Assembly: GCF_026013905.1 (NCBI RefSeq)
Contig: NZ_CP110257.1
Coordinates: 3,271,501 to 3,335,500 of the forward strand
Source of the DNA: Schlegelella aquatica
Lineage (GTDB): Bacteria; Pseudomonadota; Gammaproteobacteria; Burkholderiales; Burkholderiaceae_C
Direction of reading: 5' to 3'
Length of the DNA: 64,000 nt
In this document: one piece after another, positions 1 through 17,040 of the stretch
Numbering within the stretch: position 1 is the stretch's first letter
How the letters are laid out: each line of letters begins with the position of its first letter
Position numbers and translations under genes: made by a program
Notes under the pieces: model-generated
What the model was told of the DNA's origin: nothing
The model's database searches: none
The model's input: the letters and a program-made list of their open reading frames with translations, nothing else

Positions 1-504
1 TAAGTCGACCCCGGAGTTCGCCCGCGGCCTGTCGAGCGTCGCCGCGCAGGTGCAGCGCGGCTGGGATGGCGAGCGAACCATGTCCTTGTGCCGGCGCGGC
101 GCGATGTCGGTTGGTGCGATTTACCGCGATGAAACGTCCAGCGAGCGCACCGGTTGCCAGGAAAGCCGGGGCCCCAAGCAGGTAGAGAAACCAACCACTG
201 GCCGCGTGGGATTCGGTCGACTGGGCGACGAAAAACCAGACGGCACAAAGCAAAAGGTGGAGCCCAATGAAGCCACCCACCACCGCTCCCTTGATGCGTC
301 AAAGAGACTCGCCACGCCCGCCCAGATCCAGTGGGGCAAGGCAAACATCATGTACAGAGACGGCAACGTCTCTGCGGTGCGTTCAAGCACGGAAAGGCCC
401 CCTTCCCCTGAGGCGCCGGTGAGTGCCATGACCAGTGCAACAAAGGCTGGGAGTGTCAAACGGACGAGATAGTGTATGCAGGGACTCACACAAAGGGCCG
501 GCAC
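1..504 (-). pseudogene. Frameshifted membrane-protein cassette gene, runs off left edge
   Basis: From a GTG at 504 the minus strand encodes hydrophobic protein (LVRLTLPAFVALVMAL, then PSLYMMFALPHWIWAGVASLF). Near 290-310 the membrane-like reading jumps to another frame (VVGGFIGLHLLLCAVWFF, then GWFLYLLGAPAFLATGALAG), which stays open to position 1. The two halves look like one small multi-pass membrane protein broken by a frameshift. It lies in cassette orientation just downstream of an attC-like site, so it is probably a decayed integron cassette. A plus-strand reading from position 2 (STPEFARGLSSVAAQVQ) could instead be the tail of another gene. The function is unknown. Confidence 0.4.
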
Positions 505-509
505 TTTGA

Positions 510-588
510 GGCAACAGCCTCCGGTACAGCATGCCGGCCCCGCTTCAGCCTATAGCCGCGATATGTCCGAGAAGAGCGGGCGTTAGAC
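510..588 (-). other. attC-like recombination site (weak)
   Basis: A perfect GTTAGAC core lies at 582-588. The opposite boundary is a degenerate GCAAC near 511-515. The arms show limited complementarity, and a 9-bp inverted repeat (GGGCCGGCA 495-503 with TGCCGGCCC 532-540) lies across the left end. The site lies just downstream of the YbjN-like gene, as expected for that cassette's attC, but one end is poorly conserved. Confidence 0.4.
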
Positions 589-608
589 GTCACCCGTCGA
601 TCTCCCGA

Positions 609-1028
609 CTATCGACCTGCCTCTCCGAGGGCCTTCTCCACGAGCTGATCCAAGATGGCTGCTTCTATCTCGAACTCCAGTAACGCCATTGCCACGTTCC
701 ACTCCGAAACCCCGCCCGACACGGAGAGGGCGTGCGTAAAGATGAGGGTGCTCTCCTCTGACACGTACGCCCCCGTCATGAAAGCCAAGTCCGAGTTAAG
801 GCTGTTGGCGGCACTTAGCAGCGCCCCCTCATTCGCGTGGTGCCGGGACGATGCGGTCGACGGTCGCAGGAATCTTACTTGGTGACGCCCAATCACAGCG
901 ACCACGATGGTTTGGTCGTGAACCGTGACTTTCAAACATCCGTTCTCGTCGATGTCTACGGACTTCACGTCTGCCCGTACAAGCGCATCCCGGAGTCGCC
1001 CGAGAGAAAGATTTTCCGGAGATATCAT
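609..1028 (-). CDS. YbjN-like cassette protein
   Basis: This predicts a 139-residue soluble protein starting MISPENLSLGRL. It has an alternating strand/helix pattern and an acidic C-terminal helix (EFEIEAAILDQLVEKAL). The overall look is that of the YbjN / type III chaperone-like fold, but no specific function can be assigned. It is followed at once by an attC-like site and is oriented like the other cassette genes. The ATG lies 14 bases from the end of an insertion sequence, and the frame stays open up to the IS. The original start and ribosome-binding site may therefore have been removed. No good Shine-Dalgarno is visible. Confidence 0.55.
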   Translation of the reverse strand: MISPENLSLGRLRDALVRADVKSVDIDENGCLKVTVHDQTIVVAVIGRHQVRFLRPSTASSRHHANEGALLSAANSLNSDLAFMTGAYVSEESTLIFTHALSVSGGVSEWNVAMALLEFEIEAAILDQLVEKALGEAGR

Positions 1029-1042
1029 GATCGACGAATTAG

Positions 1043-2220
1043 GGAAGGTCTGCACAAAGCCCCCTGAACCGTGCCTGCGCCCCGAGTGACTCGAAATCGA
1101 ATGTCTGCGATGCCCCCTTCGGCCCCAATGCGCCAACACTCCCGCCGATTCGGTGGCCGTGGCGGCCCCGCAGGCCCATTTCGGGCGCACTATGCCCCGG
1201 CTCCCAGGAGTTGGCGGCGCGCCAGCCACAGGTTGGCCAGCGCAAACAGCGTGTGCAGCTGCGCCGTGTTCTTGGCCAGGCCCCGGTAGCGCACCTTCAC
1301 ATGCCCGAACTGGCGCTTGACCACCCGGAAGGGATGTTCCACCTTGGCCCGGATGCGCGCCTTCAAACGCTCGAGTTGCTCGGTCAGCCCTTCGATGGGA
1401 TCGGTCTTGTCCAAGGCCCGCCGCTGGCCCGGCTTCATGGCGATGTGCCACTGCACTCCGGGCGGCGCGTCAGCTCGTTTGCCCGCACCCTGGTAGCCCG
1501 CATCGGCAAACACGTCGCGCTCGTGCCCATGCAGCAGGCTGGCGGCCTCGACCACGTCGTTGACGTGCCCGCCAGTGCCGCGCGCGGTGTGCACCAGGCC
1601 CGAGTCGGCATCCACGCCGATGTGGCACTTCATGCCGAAGTACCACTGCTGGCCCTTGCGGCTTTGCTTCATCTCGGGATCACGCTGCCCCGAGGCGTTC
1701 TTGGTGGAGCTCGGGGCTGCGATCAGCGTGGCATCCACCACCGTGCCGCTCCTGAGCAGCAACCCCTTGGCGCCCAGCAGGTCGTTGACGGTCTTCAGCA
1801 TCTGGGCGGCCAGCTGGTGCTGTTCGAGCACGTGGCGGAACCTCAGGATGGTGCTCTCGTCGGGCAGCCGTTCGTCCCAGCCTTCCAGTCCGGCGAACTC
1901 GCGAAACAGCGGCACGTCGTGCAGCGCCTCTTCCATGGCCGGGTCGCTCAGGTTGAACCACTGCTGCATGAAGTGGATGCGCAGCATGGTCTCCGGGGCA
2001 AACGGCGGGCGTCCGCGCCGGCCCTCGGGCAGGTAGGGCGACACCAGCGCCACCAGGTCCGCCCAGGGCACCACGCGTTCCATCTCTTCCAGAAACTCGC
2101 GCCGCCGCGTGCGCTTGGCCGTCATCCCCAGGCCCAGGCTGTGTTGCTTCATGGGCGATATGGTCTCAGCAGCTCATGCTCTTGCCAAGCACGGCGGGGG
2201 CCCATTTGTGCAGACCTTCC
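1043..2220 (-). mobile_element. IS5-family insertion sequence, no matching target duplication
   Basis: The terminal inverted repeats are GGAAGGTCTGCACAAA at 1043-1058 and its reverse complement ending at 2220. The element is 1178 bp and contains one transposase gene. The flanks are TTAG on the left and TCAA on the right. They do not match, although IS5 members usually make a 4-bp YTAR duplication. The right end abuts the core of an attC site. This suggests a deletion or recombination after insertion. The ends resemble those of the element at 8263-9422, so the two are related. Confidence 0.85.
1190..2152 (-). CDS. IS5-family transposase
   Basis: This is a 320-residue DDE transposase of the IS5 group. 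It shows the N-terminal pattern RRREFLEEMERVVPWADL, then MLRIHFMQQWFNLSDPAMEEAL, the first catalytic Asp in GTVVDATLIAAPSSTKN, the second in DVFADAGYQG, and the C-terminal Glu region KVEHPFRVVKRQFG. It appears intact. It shares the family blocks with the transposase at 8379-9359 but is clearly a different, diverged element. Confidence 0.92.
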   Translation of the reverse strand: MKQHSLGLGMTAKRTRRREFLEEMERVVPWADLVALVSPYLPEGRRGRPPFAPETMLRIHFMQQWFNLSDPAMEEALHDVPLFREFAGLEGWDERLPDESTILRFRHVLEQHQLAAQMLKTVNDLLGAKGLLLRSGTVVDATLIAAPSSTKNASGQRDPEMKQSRKGQQWYFGMKCHIGVDADSGLVHTARGTGGHVNDVVEAASLLHGHERDVFADAGYQGAGKRADAPPGVQWHIAMKPGQRRALDKTDPIEGLTEQLERLKARIRAKVEHPFRVVKRQFGHVKVRYRGLAKNTAQLHTLFALANLWLARRQLLGAGA

Positions 2221-2288
2221 TCAACTTTCAACACGAGAGGCCCTGGCCGGCTTGCCGGACAGCGTCCTCTCGATGGAAGGGTTAGAGC
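2221..2288 (-). other. attC site
   Basis: The right core is GTTAGAGC at 2281-2288. The left core is cut to TCAAC at the IS junction (2221-2225). The arms CAACACGAGAGG and CCTCTCGATGGA pair, around a CCGG-CTTG-CCGG centre. The layout and the CTCGATGGA motif are shared with the sites at 2614, 3920 and 7616. Confidence 0.75.
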
Positions 2289-2334
2289 GCACAATTTCCA
2301 CGAAGCCGCCTTGATAATTTTGCCACGAGTGGCG

Positions 2335-2613
2335 CTATGGCATGGGCAGCCTGCAACCGGGACATACTTTCCAGTTTGTCATTTGGTCTTCTGTCTGAAC
2401 GCTGCGGCCTTCGCGTATCTCCCAGTTTTGCCCACAGTTTGGACACTCAGCAAGTATTGGGAAGAGCTTACGAGCTGAGAGCAGGACGACTATTGCGGAG
2501 CATTGCCAGGCCGACGAGGATGCCCCCGAAGCACGTGTAGTTGCGCACCGACCTATTGCGATGGGCGATCTGAACTTGAACTGCTGACGGCGTTGGGGAC
2601 ATGCTCTATGCAC
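2335..2613 (-). CDS. Small zinc-ribbon cassette protein
   Basis: This is a 92-residue protein from a GTG that directly abuts the attC core. The N-terminus is basic, followed by a hydrophobic stretch (SAIVVLLSARKLFPIL). The C-terminal half has two CxxC knuckles, CPNCGQ and CPGCRL, consistent with a zinc ribbon. It fills its cassette exactly: attC at 2614-2682 upstream and attC at 2221-2288 downstream. The function is unknown. The GTG start is chosen because no ATG occurs in the N-terminal part. Confidence 0.55.
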   Translation of the reverse strand: MHRACPQRRQQFKFRSPIAIGRCATTRASGASSSAWQCSAIVVLLSARKLFPILAECPNCGQNWEIREGRSVQTEDQMTNWKVCPGCRLPMP

Positions 2614-2682
2614 GCTCTAACGGTCGACATAAGCGGCAGCCCCTGGCTTGCCGGTAGCTGCCGCTCGATGGAGGGGTTAGGT
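2614..2682 (-). other. attC site
   Basis: The cores are GCTCTAAC (2614-2621) and GTTAGGT (2676-2682). The arms CGACATAAGCGGCAG and CTGCCGCTCGATGGA pair around a CTGGCTTGCCGG apex. It is a compact 69-bp site, very like those at 2221 and 3920. Confidence 0.85.
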
Positions 2683-2698
2683 CTCGCTTGCTGGCAGC

Positions 2699-3097
2699 TC
2701 ATAACGTCTTGATCAAGTCTTGGATGACGTCTGGCTCCATGAACGGCTTGTTTACGTTATTATTCACGAGAAATCCATCAGCGAGAATGGCGCCAAGCTT
2801 TTCCTCTGCGGCCTTGTTGAAGACTCCTGAGTAAATGCGCTTGTATGCATTGAATGTATGAAGCATTCTTCTCGCGGCATTCTCGGCTTCCGAAAGCGTG
2901 ATTGATTGGCCAGAGTTGAAGATCGGTATGAAAATCTGCAGTAGGTCATCCTTCAACTTCTGCTTCAGCTTCCTGCGTTCGTCGATCCGGGCAAACCACA
3001 CGCCAAGCAAGAACGTAGATATTCCCGGAATCCAGGAGTTCACAACACTCTCGAGAGATATCTGCCACCAAACTATGTCATTGACAATGAGGGTCAT
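2699..3097 (-). CDS. Single-pass membrane cassette protein
   Basis: This predicts 132 residues. An N-terminal segment (SWIPGISTFLLGVWFARI) looks like one membrane helix. It is followed by a charged, probably cytoplasmic region (DERRKLKQKLKDDLL) and a helical C-terminus. The ATG at 3097 is chosen because GGAG lies 6 bases upstream. A longer reading would run through the homopolymer and the attC core. The 29-C run (minus strand) lies 23 bases upstream of the ATG. The stop is followed by attC 2614-2682. No family is recognised. Confidence 0.6.
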   Translation of the reverse strand: MTLIVNDIVWWQISLESVVNSWIPGISTFLLGVWFARIDERRKLKQKLKDDLLQIFIPIFNSGQSITLSEAENAARRMLHTFNAYKRIYSGVFNKAAEEKLGAILADGFLVNNNVNKPFMEPDVIQDLIKTL

Positions 3098-3120
3098 GAT
3101 GCTCCGTAGGTGTTCAGGTC

Positions 3121-3149
3121 GGGGGGGGGGGGGGGGGGGGGGGGGGGGG
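3121..3149. repeat. 29-base poly-G tract in cassette 5' region
   Basis: Twenty-nine consecutive G residues lie between the cassette boundary (GTTAGGC on the minus strand, at 3175-3169) and the start codon of the gene at 2699-3097. Tracts this long are unstable during replication and can alter promoter or leader spacing. The exact length may also be a sequencing or assembly artefact. Confidence 0.9.
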
Positions 3150-3168
3150 ATGACTGCGTTTGTGCCAA

Positions 3169-3321
3169 GCCTAACGAATGAAAGGGGCTTCCGTGTCTCG
3201 AACAAGCCGCGTTGCGGCCAACGGCATCGAAGTGCGACGATGGGAAGTGCGATATCAGTAACCGGCGCTGTGCAAGCGGCGAGCCGCTTGCACAGCGCCC
3301 GCGTTGACTGGATGGTTAGCC
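3169..3321 (-). other. attC site with a 17-bp perfect hairpin
   Basis: The cores are GCCTAAC (3169-3175) and GTTAGCC (3315-3321). The apex is a perfect 17-bp inverted repeat, GGCGCTGTGCAAGCGGC at 3264-3280 with its complement at 3283-3299, separated by 2 bases. Pairing continues outward (CAGTAACC with the GTTGACTG side). At 153 bp this is the longest site in the array. The TAA stop of the next gene lies inside the right core. Confidence 0.8.
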
Positions 3322-3861
3322 CTCACAACTCGCCTCCCGCAAATGGATGTGTGGAGCGAGAAATTCATACGCGCGGCGGTTTCGAATTACAAAGGCACGG
3401 ACGAAATGTGTTGCTGCAACATAGACCAGCCGTGCGTTCCAAAGGGCAAACAAGAAGAGTGCCGCGTACCACCCGATATACTCGGAGGGGAACCAGCCCA
3501 GGTAAACACTGAGTAACGCAAGGAAGAGAAGCACGGTCACGCCAGTCATACCCTGCTTGGGCATGGACGAGGCACCCGCGACCACGAAGTAGACGACAAT
3601 TGAGACGGGGATGGCGAGTGCTGCCCACCAGCCGAAGGCCAAGACGGCCAAGACAAAACTAGCAAGCAGCGAGACAGGAGCGCCCACAAAAGCTCCGAGC
3701 ACCACCATCTTCTCGAAGTATGGAGCTTCACCCGTTTCTGCCTCGATACGGGAAAGCGAAACATCCGTATAAAGCTTTCGGGCCATGCTCCGATCGACGC
3801 CAATAAGAAGCGAACCGGATTGAATTCGGGCAACCAGCGCTTGATATTCCTCGTCAGTCAT
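3316..3861 (-). CDS. Multi-pass membrane cassette protein
   Basis: This is a 181-residue protein with a soluble N-terminal third (TDEEYQALVARIQSG) and about four hydrophobic segments, near residues 55-75 (VGAPVSLLASFVLAVLAF), 75-95, 105-125 and 130-145. The ATG at 3861 sits 8 bases from a GGCTAAC core, so the leader is minimal, as in many integron cassettes. The stop codon overlaps the attC core at 3315-3321. No conserved family is recognised. Confidence 0.65.
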   Translation of the reverse strand: MTDEEYQALVARIQSGSLLIGVDRSMARKLYTDVSLSRIEAETGEAPYFEKMVVLGAFVGAPVSLLASFVLAVLAFGWWAALAIPVSIVVYFVVAGASSMPKQGMTGVTVLLFLALLSVYLGWFPSEYIGWYAALFLFALWNARLVYVAATHFVRAFVIRNRRAYEFLAPHIHLREASCEG

Positions 3862-3919
3862 AGCCAAGGGCTAACGTGTTTTAGGAATCAACAGTTAAGG
3901 GTAACATGGACGACTGATC

Positions 3920-3990
3920 CCCTAAACGTTCGACATGAGCGGTATGACCCGGCTTGCCGGCGCATGTCCGCTCGATGGAGGGGTTAGAGC
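3920..3990 (-). other. attC site
   Basis: The cores are CCTAAAC (3921-3927) and GTTAGAGC (3983-3990). The arms GTTCGACATGAGCGG and CCGCTCGATGGAGGGG flank a CCCGGCTTGCCGG apex. It shares its sequence with the sites at 2221, 2614 and 7616. A second core-like GGCTAAC at 3869-3875 lies just outside and could be the true left boundary. Confidence 0.8.
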
Positions 3991-3999
3991 GGACCGCCG

Positions 4000-4485
4000 C
4001 TACTTGATACCGTACTGAACCTTTATCGACTTCGCTACCAGCGCGGCATCGTACACGGTCGTGCTCAGAGGCGGCTTTTCCTTGAAGAGGACGACGGTGA
4101 TGGAAGGCGCAGGAAAGCTAAAAACGTACGTCTGTCCCCCGTAGGTCTGCGCGGTTCCGCGCGTTGAATTACCGTAGGTTGTCAAGTTGATGTTGGTCGT
4201 AGATGGCGTTGTATAGGCCCCGGTCCTCGAATCGTCGGGGGCAGACCCGATGATGAAGTGACTGTAGCCGTTGGCCAATGCCAGCTCTGCTGCGCGCAGA
4301 AGCGCCAAGTCTGCTGCCTGTGTTTTTGACATATGGCCGTTCGCCTCAAAAGTAACTTTGAAGGCGTTGTCCGCGATCTGCACTTCTTTCCAGCCCCCGC
4401 CGCCCAAGAAAGTGTACGGCCGATATGCAGTTGCGCAGGCGGTCAAGAAGATCGCGGCCAGAGCCGAGCTGATTGGTGCTTTCAT
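4000..4485 (-). CDS. Cassette-borne lipoprotein (CC0125/CC1285-like)
   Basis: This is a 161-residue predicted lipoprotein. A short signal peptide (ISSALAAIFLTAC) ends in an LTAC lipobox. The mature part starts ATAYRPYTFLGGGGW and contains a region rich in Thr, Tyr and Gly (TTPSTTNINLTTYGNST). The YRP...GGW pattern resembles the CC0125/CC1285 lipoproteins common in integron cassettes, though that is a recollection of the family, not a search result. The ATG at 4485 has GGAGG 10 bases upstream. It is flanked by attC sites 4508-4622 and 3920-3990. Confidence 0.7.
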   Translation of the reverse strand: MKAPISSALAAIFLTACATAYRPYTFLGGGGWKEVQIADNAFKVTFEANGHMSKTQAADLALLRAAELALANGYSHFIIGSAPDDSRTGAYTTPSTTNINLTTYGNSTRGTAQTYGGQTYVFSFPAPSITVVLFKEKPPLSTTVYDAALVAKSIKVQYGIK

Positions 4486-4507
4486 AGGATTGATGCCTCC
4501 GTCGTGA

Positions 4508-4622
4508 GCTCTAACGTTGGAGTTGACCGGCAGGCAGCGGCATTGCGCCGCGGGGCGTGTGCTCTCCTGCACGCCTCGCGGCGCAATGCCGCTGCGTGTC
4601 CGGGTCGAACGACCTGTTAGGC
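4508..4622 (-). other. attC site with a 26-bp near-perfect hairpin
   Basis: The cores are GCTCTAAC (4508-4515) and GTTAGGC (4616-4622). The centre is an inverted repeat of 26 bp with a single mismatch, arms 4534-4559 and 4570-4595, and a 10-base loop. It lies downstream of the reverse-transcriptase gene and upstream of the lipoprotein cassette. Confidence 0.85.
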
Positions 4623-4671
4623 CGCATGCGCATGAAGACGAGGTTCACAAGAGCGCTTGTCACGAACGGCA

Positions 4672-6204
4672 TCAGAAAGGCAATTCATCTTCGAGAGGGT
4701 TGGTTTCTGGGGAGCCACAAAGCACCCACTTTGCCATCCACTTCTCCATGGTGCTAAGGCTTTCGCCTGTGATCAGGGGCCAAAGCCACTTTTCGCGCTC
4801 ATCCTTGGACAGGATTTGGGCTGCTAGCAAAATCGAGCGCCTGTCCCAATACGCATAGTGGAGCAGCTGGTTCTTCCTGTCCTTCACCCAAGCCTGGTTG
4901 CCCATTGTTATTGCGGCACGGGCCTGCGGACGGAGCCGTCTGCTCGTGAATACAAAGGAGCGAATCTTAGGCAACTTCAGAAGACCAGAGTGACGAGAGA
5001 AGTACCATTCGAGCCAGAGCCTAACGGCCCTGATGTTTGCGGCAGGATCTTCTGCAAGCGCCTCCAGCTTTGCTCCGTGTGAGTCGATGAAATCCGAATC
5101 CGTGACGGAGTCTAGATACAGAGCAATGTCGTTCGCCGCCGGAGCAAAGAACGACATGTTCTCCATGAGCATCGGAGCGATGTCCGGGATTTCGTGTGCC
5201 CGAGCTCTACGCACGATGGCACGAATCACGCCCAGATCCAGCGAGTCGAACTTTGTGATGCGCTTCAGGGCATCGAGCAAGATTTCTCCGACGTTGTCCA
5301 AGGGAGTCAAATCAACATCTTCAACCTCCATCGTGTAAGGGTTGACAACTTCAATCTCTCCGAGGATTTCAAGCTTCTCCAACTGATATTGATTGTTCAG
5401 CTCCTTCTGCACGAACTCCTCGGACTTGCTGATCCGAGTCTTCTCCGCTGAGAGTGAGAGTCTCTGATTCTCGTGAAGATAGAGGCAAAAGTCCTGCACC
5501 AACGCCTCTAGCTCCTGATATGAGTTTCCGAAGATCCGGAAATCATCAACATACCTAACGTGGTCAAACCCACGACCGTAGACGAACTGATCGACATTGA
5601 TGAGAGTAGCCTCGGCCATGACAATGCTGGCTGCAGGGCCGACAGGGATTCCCTGGGATGCTCTCGTATTGAGCGCAGTGAGGAAATACTCGATTTTCTT
5701 GGAGATCCCCGGTGGGACATCGGTCGCTGACTGAATCGCGTTCTGCAGTCGATGAAGATAGATCTTGTTGTAGAAGTCAGCGATGTCCGCAGAAAGCACG
5801 AATGGGTATGCCTTGGCGAGGTTCTCGCAACGCTCACGATACACATTAAAGCCTGACCCGTCTGCGAAGAAGCTCCTATCGCTCTCCGAGATTCTGTAGG
5901 AGCAGGCGACTTCCGGGCTCGCGCGTGCCCCTTCCACGGACATTGCCACAGTTTTAGCTAACGCTGCATAGATCAACGAATCTATTGGCTCGGGTCGATG
6001 AACGACTCTGAATCCGTTCCGCGTCTTCGGCCAAGGCTCCACTAAGGGCGGGGCTGAAAGCACTTGATCCAGTTCTGAGTTCAGGATGTGCGCTTTCACC
6101 TCGTCCCAGAGGTGGCCGATCGCGAAGAACTCCTCTGCTCGAGGGAAGAAGTCGGTGTCGTAGGGCACTTCGCATAACCCCATTTCCGAAGGCTGAACCG
6201 GCAT
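4672..6204 (-). CDS. Abi/DRT-like reverse transcriptase, 5' end replaced by IS sequence
   Basis: The 510-residue reading frame has the RT palm motifs: SADIADFY (138-145), QGIPVGP (184-190), catalytic RYVDD (217-221) and LSLSAEKTRI (249-258). A roughly 240-residue helical C-terminal region follows. The lack of intron-maturase features, the CSYR motif and the N-terminal DTDFFP motif place it with the stand-alone Abi/DRT (UG) reverse transcriptases, most of whose studied members act in phage defence. The subgroup is not certain. The first 14 codons (MPVQPSEMGLCEVP) come from the IS5-family element. The native 5' end lies beyond the IS at 7465-7539 and joins in frame to give a 520-residue protein. 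As it stands, the start codon and promoter would be IS-derived, so activity is doubtful. Confidence 0.85.
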   Translation of the reverse strand: MPVQPSEMGLCEVPYDTDFFPRAEEFFAIGHLWDEVKAHILNSELDQVLSAPPLVEPWPKTRNGFRVVHRPEPIDSLIYAALAKTVAMSVEGARASPEVACSYRISESDRSFFADGSGFNVYRERCENLAKAYPFVLSADIADFYNKIYLHRLQNAIQSATDVPPGISKKIEYFLTALNTRASQGIPVGPAASIVMAEATLINVDQFVYGRGFDHVRYVDDFRIFGNSYQELEALVQDFCLYLHENQRLSLSAEKTRISKSEEFVQKELNNQYQLEKLEILGEIEVVNPYTMEVEDVDLTPLDNVGEILLDALKRITKFDSLDLGVIRAIVRRARAHEIPDIAPMLMENMSFFAPAANDIALYLDSVTDSDFIDSHGAKLEALAEDPAANIRAVRLWLEWYFSRHSGLLKLPKIRSFVFTSRRLRPQARAAITMGNQAWVKDRKNQLLHYAYWDRRSILLAAQILSKDEREKWLWPLITGESLSTMEKWMAKWVLCGSPETNPLEDELPF

Positions 6205-7463
6205 GAGGGCGCTCGCGTCGTTCAGTTCGGGGTTCTCGGTGCCGCTCAGGCCCCGTCATCGCAGCCTTGGCGGGCGCCCGAGGCCCTGCAAAACTGCGTT
6301 TGCAGGCTCTGCGGGCGCACCTCTCCCTTCATCGCGCACACCCGCACGGGTCATGGCGCACCAGCCAGACCAGCCGCTTGGCGTTGTACGCCGCGCACTT
6401 CAGCAGGATCGCCAGTTCGTTTCTCGCCAGCGTCATCGCCCGCACGCACTTGCCGCCCAACTGCTCGAGGCCGGCGAACACATGTTCGCCTCTGGCGCGG
6501 ACGCGGTTGATCGCCTTGTTGCGCGCGTCCAGTCGCACGCGCCGCTCCTGCCCGGGCTTGGCACGCCGCGCGATGCCGTCGCGCAGCCCGTGGGCCTGCA
6601 GCAACTGGCGGTTGGTCTGCGCGTCGTAGCCTCGGTCGGCCAGCAGCCGCGCGCCGGTGTTGGCGCGGTCCAGCACCTCCTTGAGCGTCTGGCCGTCGTC
6701 GGCGTTGGCCGGCGTGACCTTCGCCCGGCGGATCAGCTTGTAGCGCGCGTCCGCGTTGGCGTGCACCTTGTAGCCGTAGAAGCTCTTGCCGTGCTTCTTG
6801 GTCCAGCGCGCGTCGCGGTCGGTGTGCTGCAGCCGCTTGGCATTCCAGCCCTCGGGCCTGCGGCCTTCGTTGAGCGCTTCGCGCTCGTCCTTGTTCGCCT
6901 GGGTGAGCGGTGCCTGCACGATGCTGGCATCCACGATCTGCCCGCCGCGCGGGATGTAGCCGTGCTGCTGCAACTGCAGGCTCACCGCCTCGAAGATAGC
7001 GCGGCCGCCCAGACCGCCTTGGGCCAAGCGCTGCTTGAAACTCCACAGCGTGCGCGCATCGGGGATGTGCAGTGCTCCGTCCAGGCGGCAGAAGTGCTGG
7101 AAGCTCATGCGGTCCAGCACCTGGTACTCGCAGTCCTCGTCGCTGAGGTTGTACAGCGACTGGATGAACAGCAGCCGCACCATCACCTCGGTGGGGTACG
7201 GCGGGCGCCCGCCTTTGCTACGGTCAGCGCGAGGGCAGGCGGTGTCGACCCGGGCGGCAATGGCCGCGAAGTCGATCAGTTCGTCCATTGCTGCCAGGTT
7301 GGCGATGAAGCCGCCGAGCTTGGCTTGGCGCTGGTCCTGCACGAACAGGTCAGCGCCAGGCTGGTGACGCCACAAAGACGAGGGCTTGATGCGCGGGGTG
7401 ATCATGGGCGACATCATGCCGGCTCACGGGCTGCAAGGGGGAGGGAGGTTTCGAGAAGTGCCC
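6163..7463 (-). mobile_element. IS5-family element inside the reverse-transcriptase gene
   Basis: The ends are GGGCACTTC at 6163 and its complement at 7463. The next bases are also similar (GCATAACC and TCGAAACC). The target duplication CGTA is present at 6159-6162 and 7464-7467. Removing the 1301-bp element and one CGTA restores an uninterrupted RT reading frame (...HITSYY-DTDFFP...), which confirms both ends. Confidence 0.93.
6329..7417 (-). CDS. IS5-family transposase (second type)
   Basis: This is a 362-residue transposase. It has a GGRPPYPTEVMVRLLFIQ block, a catalytic Asp in GGQIVDASIVQAPL, a second in ARLLADRGYDAQTN, and a C-terminal VRARGEHVFAGLEQLGGK block with the Glu. It is longer than, and distinct from, the transposases at 1190 and 8379 and belongs to another IS5 subgroup. 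It is transcribed in the same direction as the gene it interrupts. It looks intact. Confidence 0.9.
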   Translation of the reverse strand: MMSPMITPRIKPSSLWRHQPGADLFVQDQRQAKLGGFIANLAAMDELIDFAAIAARVDTACPRADRSKGGRPPYPTEVMVRLLFIQSLYNLSDEDCEYQVLDRMSFQHFCRLDGALHIPDARTLWSFKQRLAQGGLGGRAIFEAVSLQLQQHGYIPRGGQIVDASIVQAPLTQANKDEREALNEGRRPEGWNAKRLQHTDRDARWTKKHGKSFYGYKVHANADARYKLIRRAKVTPANADDGQTLKEVLDRANTGARLLADRGYDAQTNRQLLQAHGLRDGIARRAKPGQERRVRLDARNKAINRVRARGEHVFAGLEQLGGKCVRAMTLARNELAILLKCAAYNAKRLVWLVRHDPCGCAR

Positions 7464-7464
7464 C

Positions 7465-7539
7465 GTAGTAGCTGGTTATATGCCGCAACGCAAAGTCGAG
7501 GGTCTCGGCAGAGATAAGTGTCTTGAGCGGCTGCGTCAT
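7465..7539 (-). pseudogene. Severed 5' end of the reverse-transcriptase gene
   Basis: From the ATG at 7539 the minus strand encodes MTQPLKTLISAETLDF, then ALRHITSYY, where the IS begins. The helix followed by DTDFFP (now at 6162 and below) is the usual N-terminus of this RT family, so these 25 codons are the native start. The 5' cassette boundary (GTTGGAC at 7622-7616) is 77 bases upstream. That leader holds a small hairpin (GAGCGGC-GA-GCCGCTC, 7564-7579). There is little room for a long upstream ncRNA. Confidence 0.85.
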
Positions 7540-7615
7540 ATCAGGTTCTAAGTCTTAGATCGGGAGCGGCGAGCCGCTCTTTGACGGTCGGATCATCGCA
7601 CTGCGGTCTCATGCG

Positions 7616-7726
7616 GTCCAACGTTCGACATGAGGGGCGACTACCGGCAGGCCGCGCGGAAGCGACAATGAACCACCTCTGCAGCGTGGCCTGCCGGTAG
7701 ACGTCTCCTCGATGGAGAGTTAGAGC
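7616..7726 (-). other. attC site
   Basis: The cores are GTCCAAC (7616-7622, perfect) and GTTAGAGC (7719-7726). A perfect 13-bp inverted repeat, CTACCGGCAGGCC (7641-7653) with its complement (7688-7700), forms the stem. The arms carry the shared CGACATGAG and CTCGATGGA motifs. Confidence 0.85.
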
Positions 7727-8051
7727 TGTAGCCGACCGCGCCACTGCTCAGACAGAACCGCGGCTCAAAGTTGCTCGGTGCGTTAACGGCAAGAAACCCA
7801 TTGCCAAAGTTTTCCCGCGAGCCGCCCCGCCCCGCAAGGCCCACTTTCGGGGGAGGCACATGGCCAGACGACCAGACAGACTAGCCCGACCATGAGCACC
7901 CGGGGACGAACAACCCAGCCAGCGAGCGCTTCAAACTGAACCTGCTGCCCAAGCGCCCCTGACCTCCACACACCCCGAGCCTAAGAGGCCGAGAAACCCC
8001 TCGCCGCTGTTTCAAGCAGCGGCCGACGTGCCCCGGTGCCGCTTCACGCGC
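7727..8051. other. Apparently non-coding cassette body
   Basis: This is about 325 bp between two attC sites without a convincing gene. The best candidate is a 62-residue minus-strand ORF at 7783-7971 with one hydrophobic stretch (VLMVGLVCLVVWPCA). It could be a small membrane protein, or chance. The segment may be a promoter-bearing or RNA cassette. Confidence 0.4.
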
Positions 8052-8132
8052 GCTCTAACAGGGGGCGCTAAGCGGTGGACGGAGGCTGGCGTAGCCAGCC
8101 GGAGGACGTTTGATTGAGCAACGGGTTAGAGC
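8052..8132 (-). other. attC site closest to the integrase
   Basis: The cores are GCTCTAAC (8052-8059) and GTTAGAGC (8125-8132). A GGCTGGC-GTA-GCCAGCC hairpin lies at 8084-8100. This 81-bp site is the last recognisable one before the integrase promoter region. Confidence 0.75.
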
Positions 8133-8228
8133 GCGACCGTGCCATGCGCTGCATCTTCAGCCACGACCAAACAAGCCGGACATGGCAGCTAGCACGAGCA
8201 ACGCGCCCCCTAGGCTTGCGCGGGGATG
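8133..8228. other. Expected attI / cassette-promoter region
   Basis: The stretch lies between the first attC and the intI LexA box, where attI and the cassette promoter Pc sit in other integrons. No clear GTTRRRY core or direct repeats could be identified, so the assignment rests on position only. It might instead be a tiny ORF-less first cassette. Confidence 0.3.
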
Positions 8229-8244
8229 CTGTATATACATACAG
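8229..8244. promoter_or_regulatory. LexA (SOS) box in the intI promoter
   Basis: CTGTATATACATACAG matches the CTGT-N8-ACAG LexA operator and is embedded in a longer palindrome (GATGCTGTAT...ATACAGCATC, 8225-8248). It ends 7 bases before the intI start codon at 8252, where LexA boxes sit in SOS-controlled integron integrase genes. Confidence 0.85.
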
Positions 8245-8262
8245 CATCGCAATGGTCCCTAA

Positions 8263-9422
8263 GGAAGGTCTGAACAACCCGCTCTGCCGCCCGGATTGCG
8301 GCATCGTGGCGCCGGCCTGGCGTCGCTTTCGAGCCGGATTTCGCCCGTGCAGGGCGGTTTTTGGCGGGTTTCCCCGCCTTACGGACGCACTGCTCCCGTC
8401 GTCGGCAACAAACGCCGGCGCGCCATCCACAGGTTCGACAGCGCGAACAGCGTCAGCACCTGCGCCGCGTTCTTCGCCAGGCCGCGGTAGCGCACCTTCG
8501 TGTAGCCGAACTGCCGCTTGATCACCCGGAACGGGTGCTCCACCTTCGCCCGCAGACTGGCCTTGTAGCGCTCCCACCGCTCGGCGTAGCGCCGCTCGCG
8601 CTCGTTCTTCATCGCACGCAGCTTCGACGGCTTCTCCGCGATCAGGAATCCGGCGTCCACGTCCTGCAGCTCCTCGCGCTTCTCGGCACCCGTGTAGCCG
8701 CTGTCGCCGCACACCGTGTCTTCCCGGCCGTGCAGCAGCTTGTACACCTGCGTCACGTCGGCCACGTTCGCCGCCGTGCATTCCACGTGGTGCACCAGAC
8801 CGGACGCGTCATCCACGCCGATGTGCGCCTTCATCCCGAAGAACCACTGGTTGCCCTTCTTGGTCTGGTGCATCGCCGGATCGCGCTCGCCCGCCTTGTT
8901 CTTGGTCGAGCTCGGCGCACTGATGATCGTGGCATCCACGATCGTGCCACTGCGCAGGCTCAGGCCCTTGCGCTGAAGATGGGCGTTGACCTGCTCGAAG
9001 AGCTTCTCGGCCAGCCCGTGCGTCTCCAACAGCCGGCGGAAGTTGAGGATCGTCGTCTCGTCCGGGATGTCGGCAAGCCCGCCCAACTGCGCGAAGCGGC
9101 GCATCACCGGCGTGTCGTACAAGGCTTCTTCCATCGCCGGGTCGCTGAGCGCATACCACTGCTGCAGGAAGTGGATGCGCAGCATCGTCGCCAACGGATA
9201 GGGCTGGCGACCGGGACGGCCCATCTTCGGGTAGTGCGGCTCGATCAGACCCAGCAGCGCCTGCCACGGCACCACCTGCTCCATCTCCGCCAAAAACACC
9301 TCGCGCCGCGTGCGCTTGCGGCTCCCCAGACCCTCGGCATCACCGAACGACAGCTGCATCGCACTCACCCCGATCACGGTGAGGCATTGTCGCGCAATCG
9401 GGCGGAGTTGTTCAGACCTTCC
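8263..9422 (-). mobile_element. IS5-family insertion sequence in intI
   Basis: The terminal inverted repeats are GGAAGGTCTGAACAAC at 8263 and its complement (one mismatch) ending at 9422. It is flanked by a perfect 4-bp CTAA duplication (8259-8262 and 9423-9426), which fits the YTAR target of the IS5 group. It is 1160 bp long and complete. Confidence 0.95.
8379..9359 (-). CDS. IS5-family transposase
   Basis: This is a 326-residue transposase starting MQLSFGDAEGLGSRKRTRR. It is very close in layout to IS5 itself: MLRIHFLQQWYALSDPAMEEAL, SGTIVDATIISAPSSTKNK with the first Asp, MHQTKKGNQWFFGMKAHIGVD, TVCGDSGYTG with the second Asp, and KVEHPFRVIKRQFG with the Glu region. The ATG at 9359 is preferred over the upstream in-frame GTG at 9377 because it matches the IS5 start. 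It appears intact. Confidence 0.93.
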   Translation of the reverse strand: MQLSFGDAEGLGSRKRTRREVFLAEMEQVVPWQALLGLIEPHYPKMGRPGRQPYPLATMLRIHFLQQWYALSDPAMEEALYDTPVMRRFAQLGGLADIPDETTILNFRRLLETHGLAEKLFEQVNAHLQRKGLSLRSGTIVDATIISAPSSTKNKAGERDPAMHQTKKGNQWFFGMKAHIGVDDASGLVHHVECTAANVADVTQVYKLLHGREDTVCGDSGYTGAEKREELQDVDAGFLIAEKPSKLRAMKNERERRYAERWERYKASLRAKVEHPFRVIKRQFGYTKVRYRGLAKNAAQVLTLFALSNLWMARRRLLPTTGAVRP

Positions 9423-9678
9423 CTAACTCGACGTCTCGTGTGGAGCACCCCCTCGCCTGCTGGATGAAATGCAGCCTGGCCTGTATTCGCGCGCGGCACT
9501 ACAGCATACGGACGGAGCAGCAATACGTCCACTGGTGCGGCTGCTTGCCGGGCTTCGCGTCGGTGAGGTTAGCGCAGGGCGGTCACCCTTCGGGGCCGAC
9601 ACCGCCCGCGAATCCTTTTCGCCTCTCGCAGCCTCTTGTCTTCGGAAGTCGTTGGCGACTTCATGACTGGAGGACCAC

Positions 9679-9885
9679 ATGCTGTATCGTAAGAATATTT
9701 CGCCCCTGCACCGCCTGACCCGCATCCTGATGGCTCTGGTTGGCAGCGCCCTGATGGTGGCCGGCATTCTGAATGAAGCGCTGCTGATTCCCGTCGGCAT
9801 CGGTATCGTCGCGCTCGCGGTCACGGGTTTGGTGGGCTGGTGCCCGATGTGTGCGATCGCCGGTTTTGGAGAGCGAAAGAAATGA
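9679..9885 (+). CDS. DUF2892 (YgaP-like) small membrane protein
   Basis: This is a 68-residue protein with two membrane helices (ILMALVGSALMVAGILNEALL and VGIGIVALAVTGLVGW) and a C-terminal CPMC pair. That is the layout of DUF2892, the membrane part of YgaP-like proteins. Its function is not established. GGAGG lies 5 bases before the ATG. Its stop overlaps the ATG of the sigma factor gene (ATGA), so the two are translationally coupled. Confidence 0.8.
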   Translation: MLYRKNISPLHRLTRILMALVGSALMVAGILNEALLIPVGIGIVALAVTGLVGWCPMCAIAGFGERKK

Positions 9886-10406
9886 GCCTGGCCGCCCTTG
9901 ACGATTCGGTGATCCGTCGAGCGGTGCAGGGTGACTCGCGTGCGCTGGAGTGGCTGCTGCGCCGCAGTCAGCCGGATATCCGGCGATACGCACGACGGTA
10001 CTGCATGGCCGCCGACGTCGACGACGCCGTGCAGGAATCCCTCGTGCGCATCGCGCAGCGCCTCCCGCAACTGCGGGCAGCCACGGCACTTTCTGCCTGG
10101 CTCATGACCATCGTCAAGAGAGAGTGCGCGAGGCTGGCCCGGTGGGTCATGCGCAACGATGAACTGACCCCTGATGTGTTGGCCGGGCTCACGGCGCGCT
10201 CCGACGAAACGCTGCGCTTGGACTTGGCGCGTGCCCTGGAATCGTTGCCTCCCCACTATCTGGAAATCGTGCTGTTGAGGGATCTCGAGGAATTGTCTCT
10301 GCAAGAAATTGCTCGACGGACCGGAGAAACGATCGCCTGCATCAAGAGCCGCTTGCACCGCGCTCGGATGATGGTGCGAGAGCATCTGATGGCACCCCCC
10401 GGGTAG
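9882..10406 (+). CDS. ECF-type RNA polymerase sigma factor
   Basis: The 174-residue protein has sigma region 2 (residues 15-80: ALEWLLRRSQPDIRRYARRY, then DDAVQESLVRIAQRL) and region 4 (residues 115-165: LESLPPHYLEIVLLRDLEELSLQEIARRTG, helix-turn-helix). ECF factors redirect RNA polymerase to stress or envelope regulons. The start overlaps the DUF2892 stop. No anti-sigma factor gene is adjacent. The small membrane protein is the only partner in the operon, so a role for it in control is possible but unproven. A strong terminator follows at 10625. Confidence 0.88.
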   Translation: MSLAALDDSVIRRAVQGDSRALEWLLRRSQPDIRRYARRYCMAADVDDAVQESLVRIAQRLPQLRAATALSAWLMTIVKRECARLARWVMRNDELTPDVLAGLTARSDETLRLDLARALESLPPHYLEIVLLRDLEELSLQEIARRTGETIACIKSRLHRARMMVREHLMAPPG

Positions 10407-10624
10407 CGGTTCCCCGGCGCAACGAACCGAGCGTTCGATACTGACCGCCCCAGAACGGGGCAGGAAAACCCCTAGTGCCCGCCCGGAGACCAGCGCATAC
10501 AGTCTCATCCACTCGCAGCGAGGCGGCCCAACAGGCGGCGCTCGCGCAGGGCGGGGGACTGAGGAGACAGCACAACCATTCCAAGAGATGAGTGTGGCGC
10601 CGGTTGACGGACGCCATGCCTGAC

Positions 10625-10656
10625 GGGCGCTGGCACTGCCAGCGCCCTTTGTTTTT
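10625..10656 (+). terminator. Rho-independent terminator
   Basis: The 11-bp perfect stem GGGCGCTGGCA / TGCCAGCGCCC (10625-10635, 10637-10647) is followed by TTTGTTTTT. It ends the DUF2892-sigma operon. The 218 bases between the sigma stop and this hairpin, and the 125 after it, hold no recognisable gene. Confidence 0.85.
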
Positions 10657-10781
10657 CTGGGCTCGGGGCCGGCCAGGGCGGCGAGCGACGACCGCCGGCG
10701 AAGGTCGACAGGGTCGCGCCTGGCGGGGTTGGGTGAGAATCGCCGCTTCGCCTCGTGGCGCCCCTGCCTCACGCCTTGCCC

Positions 10782-11546
10782 ATGCTCGAGTTCGCTGTCG
10801 TCACCGTCGCCTCCCTCTTCGCGGGCTTCGTGGATGCCATCGTGGGGGGCGGCGGCTTGATCCTGGTGCCGGCGTTGTTCGGCACCTTCCCCTCGGCGGC
10901 GCCGGCCACGCTGTTCGGCACGAACAAGGGCGCGGCGGTGTGGGGCACGGCGTGGGCCACGGTGCAGTACGCGCGGCGGGTGGAGATGGTGTGGAGTGCG
11001 CTGGTGCCCGCTGCCGTGGCGGCCCTGGTGGGCAGTGCGCTCGGGGCCTGGACGGTGACGGTGGTGCCGCCCGAGGGCCTGCGCAAGGCGCTGCCGCTCA
11101 TCCTGCTGGGTGTGCTGCTCTACACGCTGGCCAAGAAGGACCTGGGCCGCGAGCACACGCGGCCTTTTCGCGGGCGGGCCGAGGCGTGGATCGCCTCGGC
11201 CATCGGCCTGGTGATCGGCTTTTACGACGGCTTCTTCGGCCCGGGCACGGGCAGCTTCTTCGTGTTCTTGTTCGTGCGGCTGCTGGGCTACGACTTCCTG
11301 CACGCCTCGGCGAGCGCCAAGCTGCTCAACACGGCGACGAATCTGTCGGCGCTGGCGCTCTTCATCGCCAAGGGGCACATCTGGTGGCACTACGCGCTCG
11401 CGATGGCGGTGGCCAACGTGGCGGGCAGCTTGCTGGGCACGCGGCTGGCGCTCAAGCACGGCACGGGCTTCGTGCGCGGGGTGTTCCTGCTCGTGGTGGG
11501 CGCGTTGATCCTGAAGACGGGGTACGACGCGTTCTTACTGACCTGA
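10782..11546 (+). CDS. TSUP (TauE/SafE) family transporter
   Basis: This is a 254-residue inner-membrane protein with about eight helices and the two characteristic TSUP half-motifs: GFVDAIVGGGGLILVPAL (residues 12-29) and GFYDGFFGPGTGSFFVFLF (about 146-164). TSUP members move sulfite, sulfoacetate or other organosulfur anions, but the substrate cannot be read from sequence. The ATG at 10782 is preferred over a GTG at 10755 because it begins right at the first helix. It stands alone between the terminator and the histidine kinase. Confidence 0.88.
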   Translation: MLEFAVVTVASLFAGFVDAIVGGGGLILVPALFGTFPSAAPATLFGTNKGAAVWGTAWATVQYARRVEMVWSALVPAAVAALVGSALGAWTVTVVPPEGLRKALPLILLGVLLYTLAKKDLGREHTRPFRGRAEAWIASAIGLVIGFYDGFFGPGTGSFFVFLFVRLLGYDFLHASASAKLLNTATNLSALALFIAKGHIWWHYALAMAVANVAGSLLGTRLALKHGTGFVRGVFLLVVGALILKTGYDAFLLT

Positions 11547-11722
11547 CCGGGCAGCACGCGGCGGGCGGCGGCCTGGGCCTGGCCGGTCGCGGTCGGGCGT
11601 CGTGCACGCTTCCCGAGGGTCGATGAAGGCACCTGTCAACTCAGACAGGCGCGAGTTGGCGTGCGTGCGTTGCAACATGTCGTAACCGCGCCACCGCTCG
11701 CCGGCGCGGCTCCATCGGCCCC

Positions 11723-12910
11723 ATGCCTGCGCCCATCCTTCACCGCCACTGGCCCCGACGCGGGGTGCCCACGCCTTCGCCCCCGACGGCCGGCGCCTGG
11801 CTGGGGGTGATGAGCGCGGCGGTGTGCTTGGCGGGCGCGGCACTCGCCTCCCTGCAGGGTTGGCCTCCCTGGGTGTGGGCGCCGGTGGCGGGTGCCCTCC
11901 TGGGCGGGGCGGCATGGTGGTGGGCCCACTGCGTGTGGCAGCGGCTGCGCGAGGTGGCCGAGGAGGCCGAGGCGCTGGCGACGGGCCGCGTCTCCGACTT
12001 CGCTACGGCCGACCACGGCGCCGCCGAGCCGCCGGAGCTGGAGTGTCTGTCGCGCTCGCTGGCGCTGCTCGTCACACGGCTGCGGGAGCGCGAGCGGGAG
12101 CTGGTGACCCTGGCCGGCTCGCTGGAGGAGCGCGTGCGCGAGCGCACCCAGGAGCTGGAGCGGGCCAACAGCGACTTGCAGAGCTTCACGCGCATGGTGT
12201 CGCACGACCTGAAGGGGCCGCTCGGCTCCATCGGGGCGGCGGCGCGCTTCGTGTACGAGAGCGGCCAGTCGCTGGAGGCCCGCCCGCGTCAGATGCTGGC
12301 GCTCATCTCGAGCGAATGCGATCGGCTCACGCTGCTGGTGGACGAGCTGCTGGCGCTGTCGCGCGTGGAGCAGCAGACCCTGGAGGTGCAACCGGTCGAC
12401 TCGGCGGCGGTGGTGCGCGCGGTGCTGGCCGACCTGCTCGCCCCCGCGCCCGGCGAGCCGGCGCCGCAGGTGGTGTGCGGGCCGCTGCCGGTGGTGCTGG
12501 CCGACGCCGTGTTGCTGCGGCAGGTGTGGCACAACCTCATCGGCAACGCGATCAAGTTCACGCGCCGGGTGCCGCAGCCGCGCATCGAGATCGAGGGCCA
12601 GGTGCGTGGCGAGGAAGTCGTCTTCCAGGTGCGCGACAACGGCGCGGGCTTCGACATGCGCCATGCCGACCGTCTGTTCGGCGTGTTCCAGCGCTTGCAC
12701 TCGAATGCCGACTTCCCCGGCAGCGGCATCGGGCTGTCCATCGTCAAGCGGGTGGTGCAGCGCCATGGTGGTCGGGTGTGGGCGAGCGGGCGGCCCGGCG
12801 AGGGGGCGTGTTTTTGCTTCTCGCTGCCGTACCGGGCGCGGCAACCCTCGCCCGCCCCCCGGCCCCCGAGCCGGGAGCCGGCCAAGAGCACGCTCGCCGC
12901 ACACGGCTGA
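11723..12910 (+). CDS. Orphan sensor histidine kinase
   Basis: The 395-residue protein has two N-terminal membrane helices (about 27-45 and 50-68) with almost no periplasmic loop. A HAMP/coiled-coil follows (to about 150), then the HisKA box MVSHDLKGPL with phospho-acceptor His161, and an HATPase domain with N box WHNLIGNAIKFT, G1 DNGAGF and G2 GSGIGLSIVKR. The short loop suggests it senses a membrane or cytoplasmic signal. The ERTQELERANSDLQSF linker resembles phytochrome- and hybrid-type kinases. No response regulator gene is adjacent, so the partner is elsewhere. The Pro-rich tail is low complexity. Confidence 0.9.
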   Translation: MPAPILHRHWPRRGVPTPSPPTAGAWLGVMSAAVCLAGAALASLQGWPPWVWAPVAGALLGGAAWWWAHCVWQRLREVAEEAEALATGRVSDFATADHGAAEPPELECLSRSLALLVTRLRERERELVTLAGSLEERVRERTQELERANSDLQSFTRMVSHDLKGPLGSIGAAARFVYESGQSLEARPRQMLALISSECDRLTLLVDELLALSRVEQQTLEVQPVDSAAVVRAVLADLLAPAPGEPAPQVVCGPLPVVLADAVLLRQVWHNLIGNAIKFTRRVPQPRIEIEGQVRGEEVVFQVRDNGAGFDMRHADRLFGVFQRLHSNADFPGSGIGLSIVKRVVQRHGGRVWASGRPGEGACFCFSLPYRARQPSPAPRPPSREPAKSTLAAHG

Positions 12911-13022
12911 CCGAGCGGCAAGCGGCCGTTGCGCGCGGCGCGCGCCCCGCTCCTGGCCCGGCCCCTCGCGTCGGCCCTCCCCTCGCCGCCCGAACAGGTC
13001 GCGCAAGGTGGGCCGCACAGGC

Positions 13023-14471: not shown

Positions 14472-14592
14472 CTAGAGGGGCCTCGCAGGGGCTCGCGGGG
14501 GACGACTGCGCGCGGCGCTTGCCAAGGCGGGCCGTTGCCCAAGCAAGCCGTGGCGGGCGCGGCGGCTCCCGCCACCACGGGCGGGCTGCCGC

Positions 14593-15354: not shown

Positions 15355-15504
15355 CGTGAGCCGATCATGACGCGCCAGGCTGAGGCGAGGCTTGCAAGAG
15401 GGCGGCGGTCGCTCGGTAGAAACCCGAACGGGTGTGGCGCTGAAACGCGGGGCGTCGTGCCGCTCGTGAGGGCATGGCGCCGCGAACGGCAGGCCACGCC
15501 GGCT

Positions 15505-17040
<1,536 letters not shown>

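What the first reader, a model, noticed from the sequence alone, without database searches (positions are those of the whole stretch)
4672..7539. Phage-defence type reverse transcriptase carried as an integron cassette and split by an IS
Removing 6163-7463 and one CGTA copy rejoins MTQPLK...HITSYY to DTDFFPRAEEF, restoring a 520-residue RT with YVDD. The gene sits between two attC sites (7616-7726 and 4508-4622), so an Abi/DRT-like RT is the cargo of a sedentary integron cassette. The RT sequence may belong to an undescribed subgroup, and the intact allele could be found in relatives. The IS also supplies an in-frame ATG (6204), so a chimeric protein lacking 25 native residues might still be made.
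Basis: partly seen in the sequence, partly recalled or inferred. Interest (0 to 1): 0.85.

Follow-up and report, generated by a model that had tools for sequence, protein, structure and literature searches.

The report
DRT8 defence gene as integron cassette
A reverse transcriptase of an anti-phage family sits in this genome as an integron cassette that a jumping gene has split, and relatives of the same enzyme in unrelated bacteria also lie in integron cassettes.

Summary
A 1,301-bp IS5-family element with a 4-bp target duplication splits a reverse transcriptase (RT) gene between two attC sites. Two other full copies of the IS are identical, so the insertion is probably recent. The RT is not an undescribed group but a clear DRT8 (431 bits; next family 113.5); its model is closest to DRT4 and DRT6.

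The array holds five clear and two weak attC-like sites; the genome has no integron integrase above cut-off. It is an integrase-less attC cluster (CALIN).

Following this up gave the most interesting result: attC sites occur in 12 of 91 other RT loci of the family, in three phyla by record title; six have attC directly on both sides of the RT. The cassette label needs at least 9 changes on the RT tree, a nuclease partner only 1. The window RT belongs to a lineage without that partner.

Defence by this RT, its DNA product, and use of the IS-started ORF are inferences. The papers most likely to report DRT cassettes could not be read.

The parts
4672..6204 (-). 510-aa ORF: RT domain and C-terminal helical domain of a DRT8 RT; its first 14 residues are IS-encoded
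7464..7539 (-). native start region of the RT gene (ATG at 7539), cut off by the IS; carries the conserved LDFAxxHI...YY stretch
6163..7463 (-). IS5-family insertion sequence, 1,301 bp; transposase ORF 6329-7417 in the same direction as the RT
6159..6162 (.). target duplication CGTA, left copy
7464..7467 (.). target duplication CGTA, right copy
4508..4623 (-). attC of the RT cassette (downstream border); 96 of 119 alignment columns identical to an attC in the genome's other array
7615..7726 (-). attC of the preceding cassette (upstream border of the RT cassette)
   Evidence: R1 was trained on it; weak with R2
3920..3990 (-). attC after the lipoprotein cassette
   Evidence: in the training sets of R1 and R2
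2614..2683 (-). attC
   Evidence: in the training sets of R1 and R2
2218..2288 (-). attC abutted by an IS5-family element
   Evidence: R1 was trained on it, R2 not
3216..3321 (-). probable attC, degenerate
   Evidence: 16.4 bits
8052..8132 (-). probable attC, weak; its R' heptamer pairs exactly with the R'' at 7726
   Evidence: 10.6 bits
4000..4479 (-). neighbouring cassette gene: CC0125/CC1285-family lipoprotein
3316..3867 (-). neighbouring cassette ORF, no family
2699..3205 (-). neighbouring cassette ORF, no family
1190..2152 (-). IS5-family transposase at one end of the array
8379..9377 (-). IS5-family transposase at the other end, where attI and the integrase would be expected

Best explanation
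The RT is a DRT8-type phage-defence enzyme without the PD-(D/E)XK partner, packaged as a one-gene integron cassette. The cassette runs on the minus strand from about 7621 to 4515 (about 1.8 kb without the IS) inside a co-oriented attC array. Shown: family, cassette borders, IS insertion, and absence of an integrase above cut-off. Inferred: an integron integrase once inserted the cassette; the array lost, or never had, its own intI and became a CALIN bounded by IS elements; and a recent IS5 transposition separated a conserved N-terminal stretch from the catalytic body, probably disabling the gene. By analogy with DRT4 and DRT6, the intact enzyme probably makes DNA during phage infection and stops the infected cell (inferred). 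More broadly, DRT8 RTs have entered integron cassettes repeatedly, so integrons are a recurrent vehicle for them.
For: DRT8 profile 2.4e-129, next family 2.3e-33. Of the 91 other RT loci, 82 were scanned with PADLOC and all 82 match DRT8; the 9 not scanned are fragments or near-duplicates. Model pLDDT 87; best PDB folds DRT4, UG15 and DRT6, TM about 0.6, then AbiK. Borders. The cassette start GTTGGACCGCATG and the end CATGCGGCCTAAC are complementary at 11 of 13 positions (read). RT GC is 53.5% against 68.6% for the window. IS. Recurrence: attC at E below 0.05 in 12 of 91 loci, 6 of them with a site on both sides of the RT (L115's downstream site is weak: E 0.28, 0.058). Exact cassette-end complementarity in 11 of 89 loci against a permuted mean of 0.76 and maximum of 5 in 5,000. 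Of 27 other RT loci, 1 has attC.
Against: The nearest relatives L038 and L039 show no attC (L038 also with full scoring); in the 13-row clade of the window RT only L132 and the window have it. The upstream attC is weak with the general model R2. The window's own cassette ends pair at 11 of 13, so it is not among the 11 exact hits. Three DRT8 loci sampled later have none, in 4.5-kb stretches. R2 was trained on sites from 9 of the 12 positive loci; L099, L106 and L115 were not used, and L099 is one-sided and weak. No expression or phage test exists here for this lineage.
Confidence: 0.8

Rival explanations
1. The IS-split gene still works: the IS supplies a start codon, and transposase transcription carries on into a 510-residue chimera that keeps DTDFFP, the RT motifs and the helical domain.
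For: ORF open from ATG 6204 to the stop; transposase and RT in the same direction, 124 nt apart; the retained body models well.
Against: The lost 25 residues carry a conserved stretch, seen in 8 of the 12 relatives printed (the print missed that region in the other 4). The first 15 residues of the ORF model at pLDDT under 50. No promoter-like site in 6150-7760 and no clear ribosome-binding site before the ATG.
Confidence: 0.12
2. The attC-like hairpins are ordinary inverted repeats or terminators, and the RT sits in a plain genomic island.
For: Two sites score weakly and the upstream border only 12.8 bits with R2, there is no integrase above cut-off, and the nearest relatives lack attC.
Against: Several sites share arm sequence, structure and orientation; the cassette ends are largely complementary; a second array lies in the same genome; and RTs of the same family sit in unmistakable arrays, such as five attC sites of one type in L084.
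Confidence: 0.06
3. The array belonged to a complete chromosomal integron of this species; the integrase was deleted by IS activity. (Compatible with the main account; it concerns only where the integrase went.)
For: 3 of 8 same-genus genomes have an integrase above cut-off; IS5 elements flank the array.
Against: No integrase remnant above the XerC/D-like background in the genome; a second array also has none beside it.
Confidence: 0.35

Closest known systems
DRT8 (UG7; the UG number is recalled) defence RT
   Same: Full-length profile match; 82 of 82 scanned relatives share the model
   Different: No PD-(D/E)XK partner beside it, unlike 15 of the 104 RT loci examined; split by an IS; carried as a cassette
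DRT4/UG15, DRT6 and AbiK
   Same: RT domain followed by an all-helical C-terminal domain; best PDB matches
   Different: About 15% identity; two papers call the DRT8 mechanism unresolved (passages)
Integron cassettes with anti-phage genes (Darracq, Getz and Kieffer 2025; seen only as cited in PMC12444791)
   Same: Defence gene between attC sites in a chromosomal array
   Different: Here an RT of the DRT8 family, in an array without integrase, broken by an IS; the same family is in cassettes in three phyla by record title
Group IIC-attC introns (recalled)
   Same: RT gene next to attC sites
   Different: This RT is DRT8, its stop is 48 bp before its own attC, and it points along the array

Membership tests
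DRT8 | RT protein matching the DRT8 model over its length | tested here: met
   430.9 bits, residues 15-494 on 18-489 of 493
DRT8 | Catalytic RT aspartates (motif A and YVDD) | tested here: met
   D140, D220 and D221 invariant in 59 sequences
DRT8 | Adjacent PD-(D/E)XK partner (seen in part of the family) | tested here: not met
   None among the neighbouring ORFs scanned; in relatives the partner is confined to one clade of 13 tree rows, so I do not treat it as defining the family
DRT8 | Confers phage resistance | not testable with these tools
   Reported at family level only (passages)
Integron cassette | attC site after the gene, in its direction | tested here: met
   4508-4623
Integron cassette | attC of the preceding cassette before the gene | tested here: met
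   7615-7726 by fold, shared arms and the untrained detector; only 12.8 bits with R2
Integron cassette | Cassette ends mutually complementary | tested here: met
   11 of 13 positions, read from the ends printed; not an exact heptamer, so not a hit
Complete integron | intI in the genome | tested here: not met
   Best hit 84.9 bits against a cut-off of 265, matched in two pieces as XerC/D-like proteins are
CALIN (term recalled) | Array of attC sites without integrase | tested here: met
   Five clear and two weak sites, no intI above cut-off
Retron or group II intron RT | Match to retron or group II models over their cut-off | tested here: not met
   Group II 53.4 bits against a cut-off of 300; retron St85 27.9 against 235

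The most novel reading that the evidence does not exclude
DRT8 reverse transcriptases, mostly those without the nuclease partner, are a recurrent class of integron cargo: one-gene defence cassettes that integrons have picked up repeatedly and spread between phyla. In L065, L081 and L084 the RT stop codon lies inside the R'' box of a called attC; in L068 and L112 an R''-like heptamer overlaps the stop, although no full attC is called there. A bolder extension, not excluded, is that the attC hairpin at the 3' end of the cassette transcript also serves the RT as structured RNA or template.
Probability: 0.5. Interest if true: 0.7.

Novelty: new variant of a known kind. Interest (0 to 1): 0.6.

Why it matters
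Integrons are now seen as stores of phage-defence genes, yet in the papers and passages I could see RT-based defence is not linked to them. If DRT8 genes ride integrons repeatedly, integrons help explain how these enzymes reach unrelated bacteria, and the compact natural cassettes are ready-made minimal units for finding out what DRT8, whose mechanism is unresolved, does.

Tried and rejected
A new RT subgroup: rejected, clear DRT8. Complete sedentary integron: rejected, no integrase above cut-off. Integrase presence as support for recurrence: dropped, because the background is high (53 of 120 genomes of relatives, own included; 10 of 12 and 9 of 17 genomes holding DRT8 loci; L042's genome was not held). 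My first reading that only this DRT8 is in a cassette (close relatives only) was overturned. A first cassette-end test with a strict R' pattern found 4 of 89 (null mean 0.53, maximum 5) and then 6 of 89 (null mean 0.42, maximum 4). I widened the pattern after seeing known sites missed and got 11 of 89, of which L067 and L119 have no other attC evidence and are probably chance. attC in L038: none with full scoring. Three extra loci from a phylum sample had none. Rfam gave no attC family in window 1-16000. No match to the RT in 50,697 phage records. Rows dropped: 15 of 119 loci whose ORFs did not match the RT; 13 of 104 fragments, near-duplicates or other RTs from the tree; 9 of 91 not scanned by PADLOC.

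Full report
OBSERVATION. The window lies in a single-contig 3.35-Mb genome, the only RVT_1 match of which is this RT. The RT ORF is 4672-6204 on the minus strand. The IS (6163-7463) encodes an IS5-family transposase over the NCBIfam cut-off (238 against 140 bits). It has two other full copies at 100% identity and one partial copy at 98%. The three full copies have different perfect 4-bp duplications, CGTA, CTTG and CTGA, so the borders are secure and the insertion is probably recent.

FAMILY. PADLOC gives DRT8 at 430.9 bits; the next model is UG23 at 113.5. NCBIfam models for DRT4, DRT5, group II and retron RTs all score far below cut-off. The window ORF and 58 relatives all match DRT8, and no other model, at 1e-60 or better; 24 more relatives all match DRT8 at 1e-20 or better. 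So 82 of the 91 RT loci used below were scanned, all 12 attC-positive ones among them; 9 fragments or near-duplicates were not. In a 92-row tree (83 DRT8-group rows and 9 other RTs, no labelled group II or retron references) the window RT groups with L038 and L039 (SH-aLRT 100), inside a 13-row beta- and gammaproteobacterial clade (99). This was the quick tree, with long-branch warnings on other rows. Full-length DRT8 is uncommon near the host: 3 of 199 genomes, own included. AlphaFold2 gives pLDDT 87 and pTM 0.86 for the 510-aa ORF, with residues 1-15 under 50. Foldseek ranks DRT4, UG15 and DRT6 first (TM about 0.6), then AbiK, Abi-P2 and AbiA. That DRT8 equals UG7 is recalled.

CASSETTE. On the minus strand the order is attC 8132-8052 (weak), attC 7726-7615, RT (start codon at 7539, stop ending at 4672), attC 4623-4508, lipoprotein gene, attC 3990-3920, two unnamed ORFs with a degenerate site at 3321-3216, attC 2683-2614 and attC 2288-2218. 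An untrained detector ranks four of these as the top four in the whole window. Four sites share arm sequence, with 38 invariant columns, and model R1 built from them finds, besides those four, a second cluster at C1:974071-976811 with 41, 22 and 22 bits. The RT cassette's own attC is of another type and matches a site in that second cluster in 96 of 119 columns. The extra base in the L'' arm fits the minus-strand orientation (my reading). The RT cassette start and end are complementary over 11 of 13 bases, six of them beyond the core. RT GC is 53.5% against 68.6% for the window. No integrase reaches the cut-off in the genome, whereas 3 of 8 same-genus genomes have one. This is a CALIN.

RECURRENCE. 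Over 104 RT-bearing loci the untrained detector found 11 attC-like sites (score 12 or more) within 400 bp of RT ends and 25 elsewhere in 1.06 Mb, the best of the latter mostly in the same few loci. I built a general attC model R2 from 20 sites in A4; its pairs covary (score 0.302; slid controls at most 0.174). R2 finds integron arrays in other genomes of the order, for example 42 sites in G141 and 40 in G019, so it works as an attC detector. Over 91 RT loci plus the window and L143, 12 loci carry sites at E below 0.05: L059, L064, L065, L068, L069, L081, L084, L099, L106, L112, L115 and L132. The better-scoring strand is the RT strand at each of these sites. Six have attC close on both sides: L065, L069, L081, L084, L115 and L132. 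L115's downstream site is E = 0.28 and 0.058. In L112 the nearest called site is about 370 bp upstream, in L068 about 730 bp downstream; L099 has one weak site; in L106 the site follows a nuclease gene; L059's adjacent site reaches only E = 0.21. Nine of the twelve gave training sites; L099, L106 and L115 did not. The 91 include near-duplicates (L051/L052, L120-L122). A separate test asks whether the sequence before the gene contains the exact complement of an R''-type heptamer at its end: 11 of 89 loci (window included, itself not a hit) do, against a mean of 0.76 and a maximum of 5 in 5,000 permutations. Two of the 11 are probably chance, and the pattern was widened after two stricter tries. 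The stop codon lies inside the R'' box of a called attC in L065, L081 and L084, and overlaps an R''-like heptamer in L068 and L112. Controls: 1 of 27 other RT loci has attC, antisense to the RT (L024); 230 sites (my sum of the table) in 60 genomes, about one per Mb, an underestimate because of stricter filters. Three DRT8 loci found later have none. On the tree the cassette label (13 rows, weak L099 included) needs at least 9 changes and the nuclease partner 1; I made no shuffled-label comparison. Hosts named in the records include Luteimonas, Lysobacter, Halomonas, Thiodiazotropha, Vibrio mimicus, Methylobacter, a Syntrophaceae bacterium and a Bacteroidales bacterium, that is Pseudomonadota, Thermodesulfobacteriota and Bacteroidota; the last two are MAGs, where misbinning is possible.

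PARTNER. A downstream ORF of 233-264 aa, overlapping or abutting the RT, recurs in 15 loci (only the longest ORF starting within -120 to +200 bases of the stop was taken). The four scanned match PADLOC RTasPDDEXK. The window clade lacks it. In L106 an attC follows the RT-nuclease pair, which may be a two-gene cassette; its upstream border was not established.

MECHANISM. Inferred only. Two papers say DRT8 protects against phage but its mechanism is unresolved (PMC13314766 and PMC13213688, passages). The fold resemblance to DRT4 and DRT6 suggests DNA synthesis that stops the infected cell. The IS removes a conserved N-terminal stretch, so I expect loss of function; a chimeric product is possible but unsupported.

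LITERATURE. PMC12444791 (passages) reports 12 defence systems among Xanthomonas cassettes, with no hit for DRT or reverse transcriptase in its text, and cites Darracq, Getz and Kieffer 2025. Darracq, Getz, Mestre 2022 and the DOI I recalled for Kieffer are not held, so I read none of them. Searches gave listings only; I then looked at passages of two listed papers. PMC12593503 treats integrons and DRTs in separate sections, and PMC8649781 reports defensive RTs and integrons as separate Tn7 cargo. Neither passage set links a DRT to a cassette. This is not proof of novelty.

Noticed in passing
L143:8072-10812 (G000:C1:974071-976811): A second attC cluster in the same genome, with no integrase above cut-off in the genome, and with an attC very like that of the RT cassette.
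   Followed up: partly
window about 2152-2218; L143 about 9117: The same type of IS5-family element ends directly against or just beside an attC in both arrays, as if it favoured attC neighbourhoods.
   Followed up: no
L024:438-512 and 3071-3204: A non-DRT8 RT near an integrase (G043:C35) with attC sites on the opposite strand; perhaps a group IIC-attC intron (recalled).
   Followed up: no
L038:5725-5757 and 7588-7620: 33-bp inverted repeats (97%) flank the closest intact RT relative; further partial copies nearby. Possible other mobility.
   Followed up: partly
L106:3828-4682: RT plus an ORF of the PD-(D/E)XK partner cluster followed by an attC: possible two-gene DRT8 cassette.
   Followed up: partly
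L036:2956-6641 (Aminobacter plasmid pANY103b): Two adjacent RT genes, the first DRT8.
   Followed up: no
window 4000-4479: CC0125/CC1285-family lipoprotein as the next cassette.
   Followed up: no
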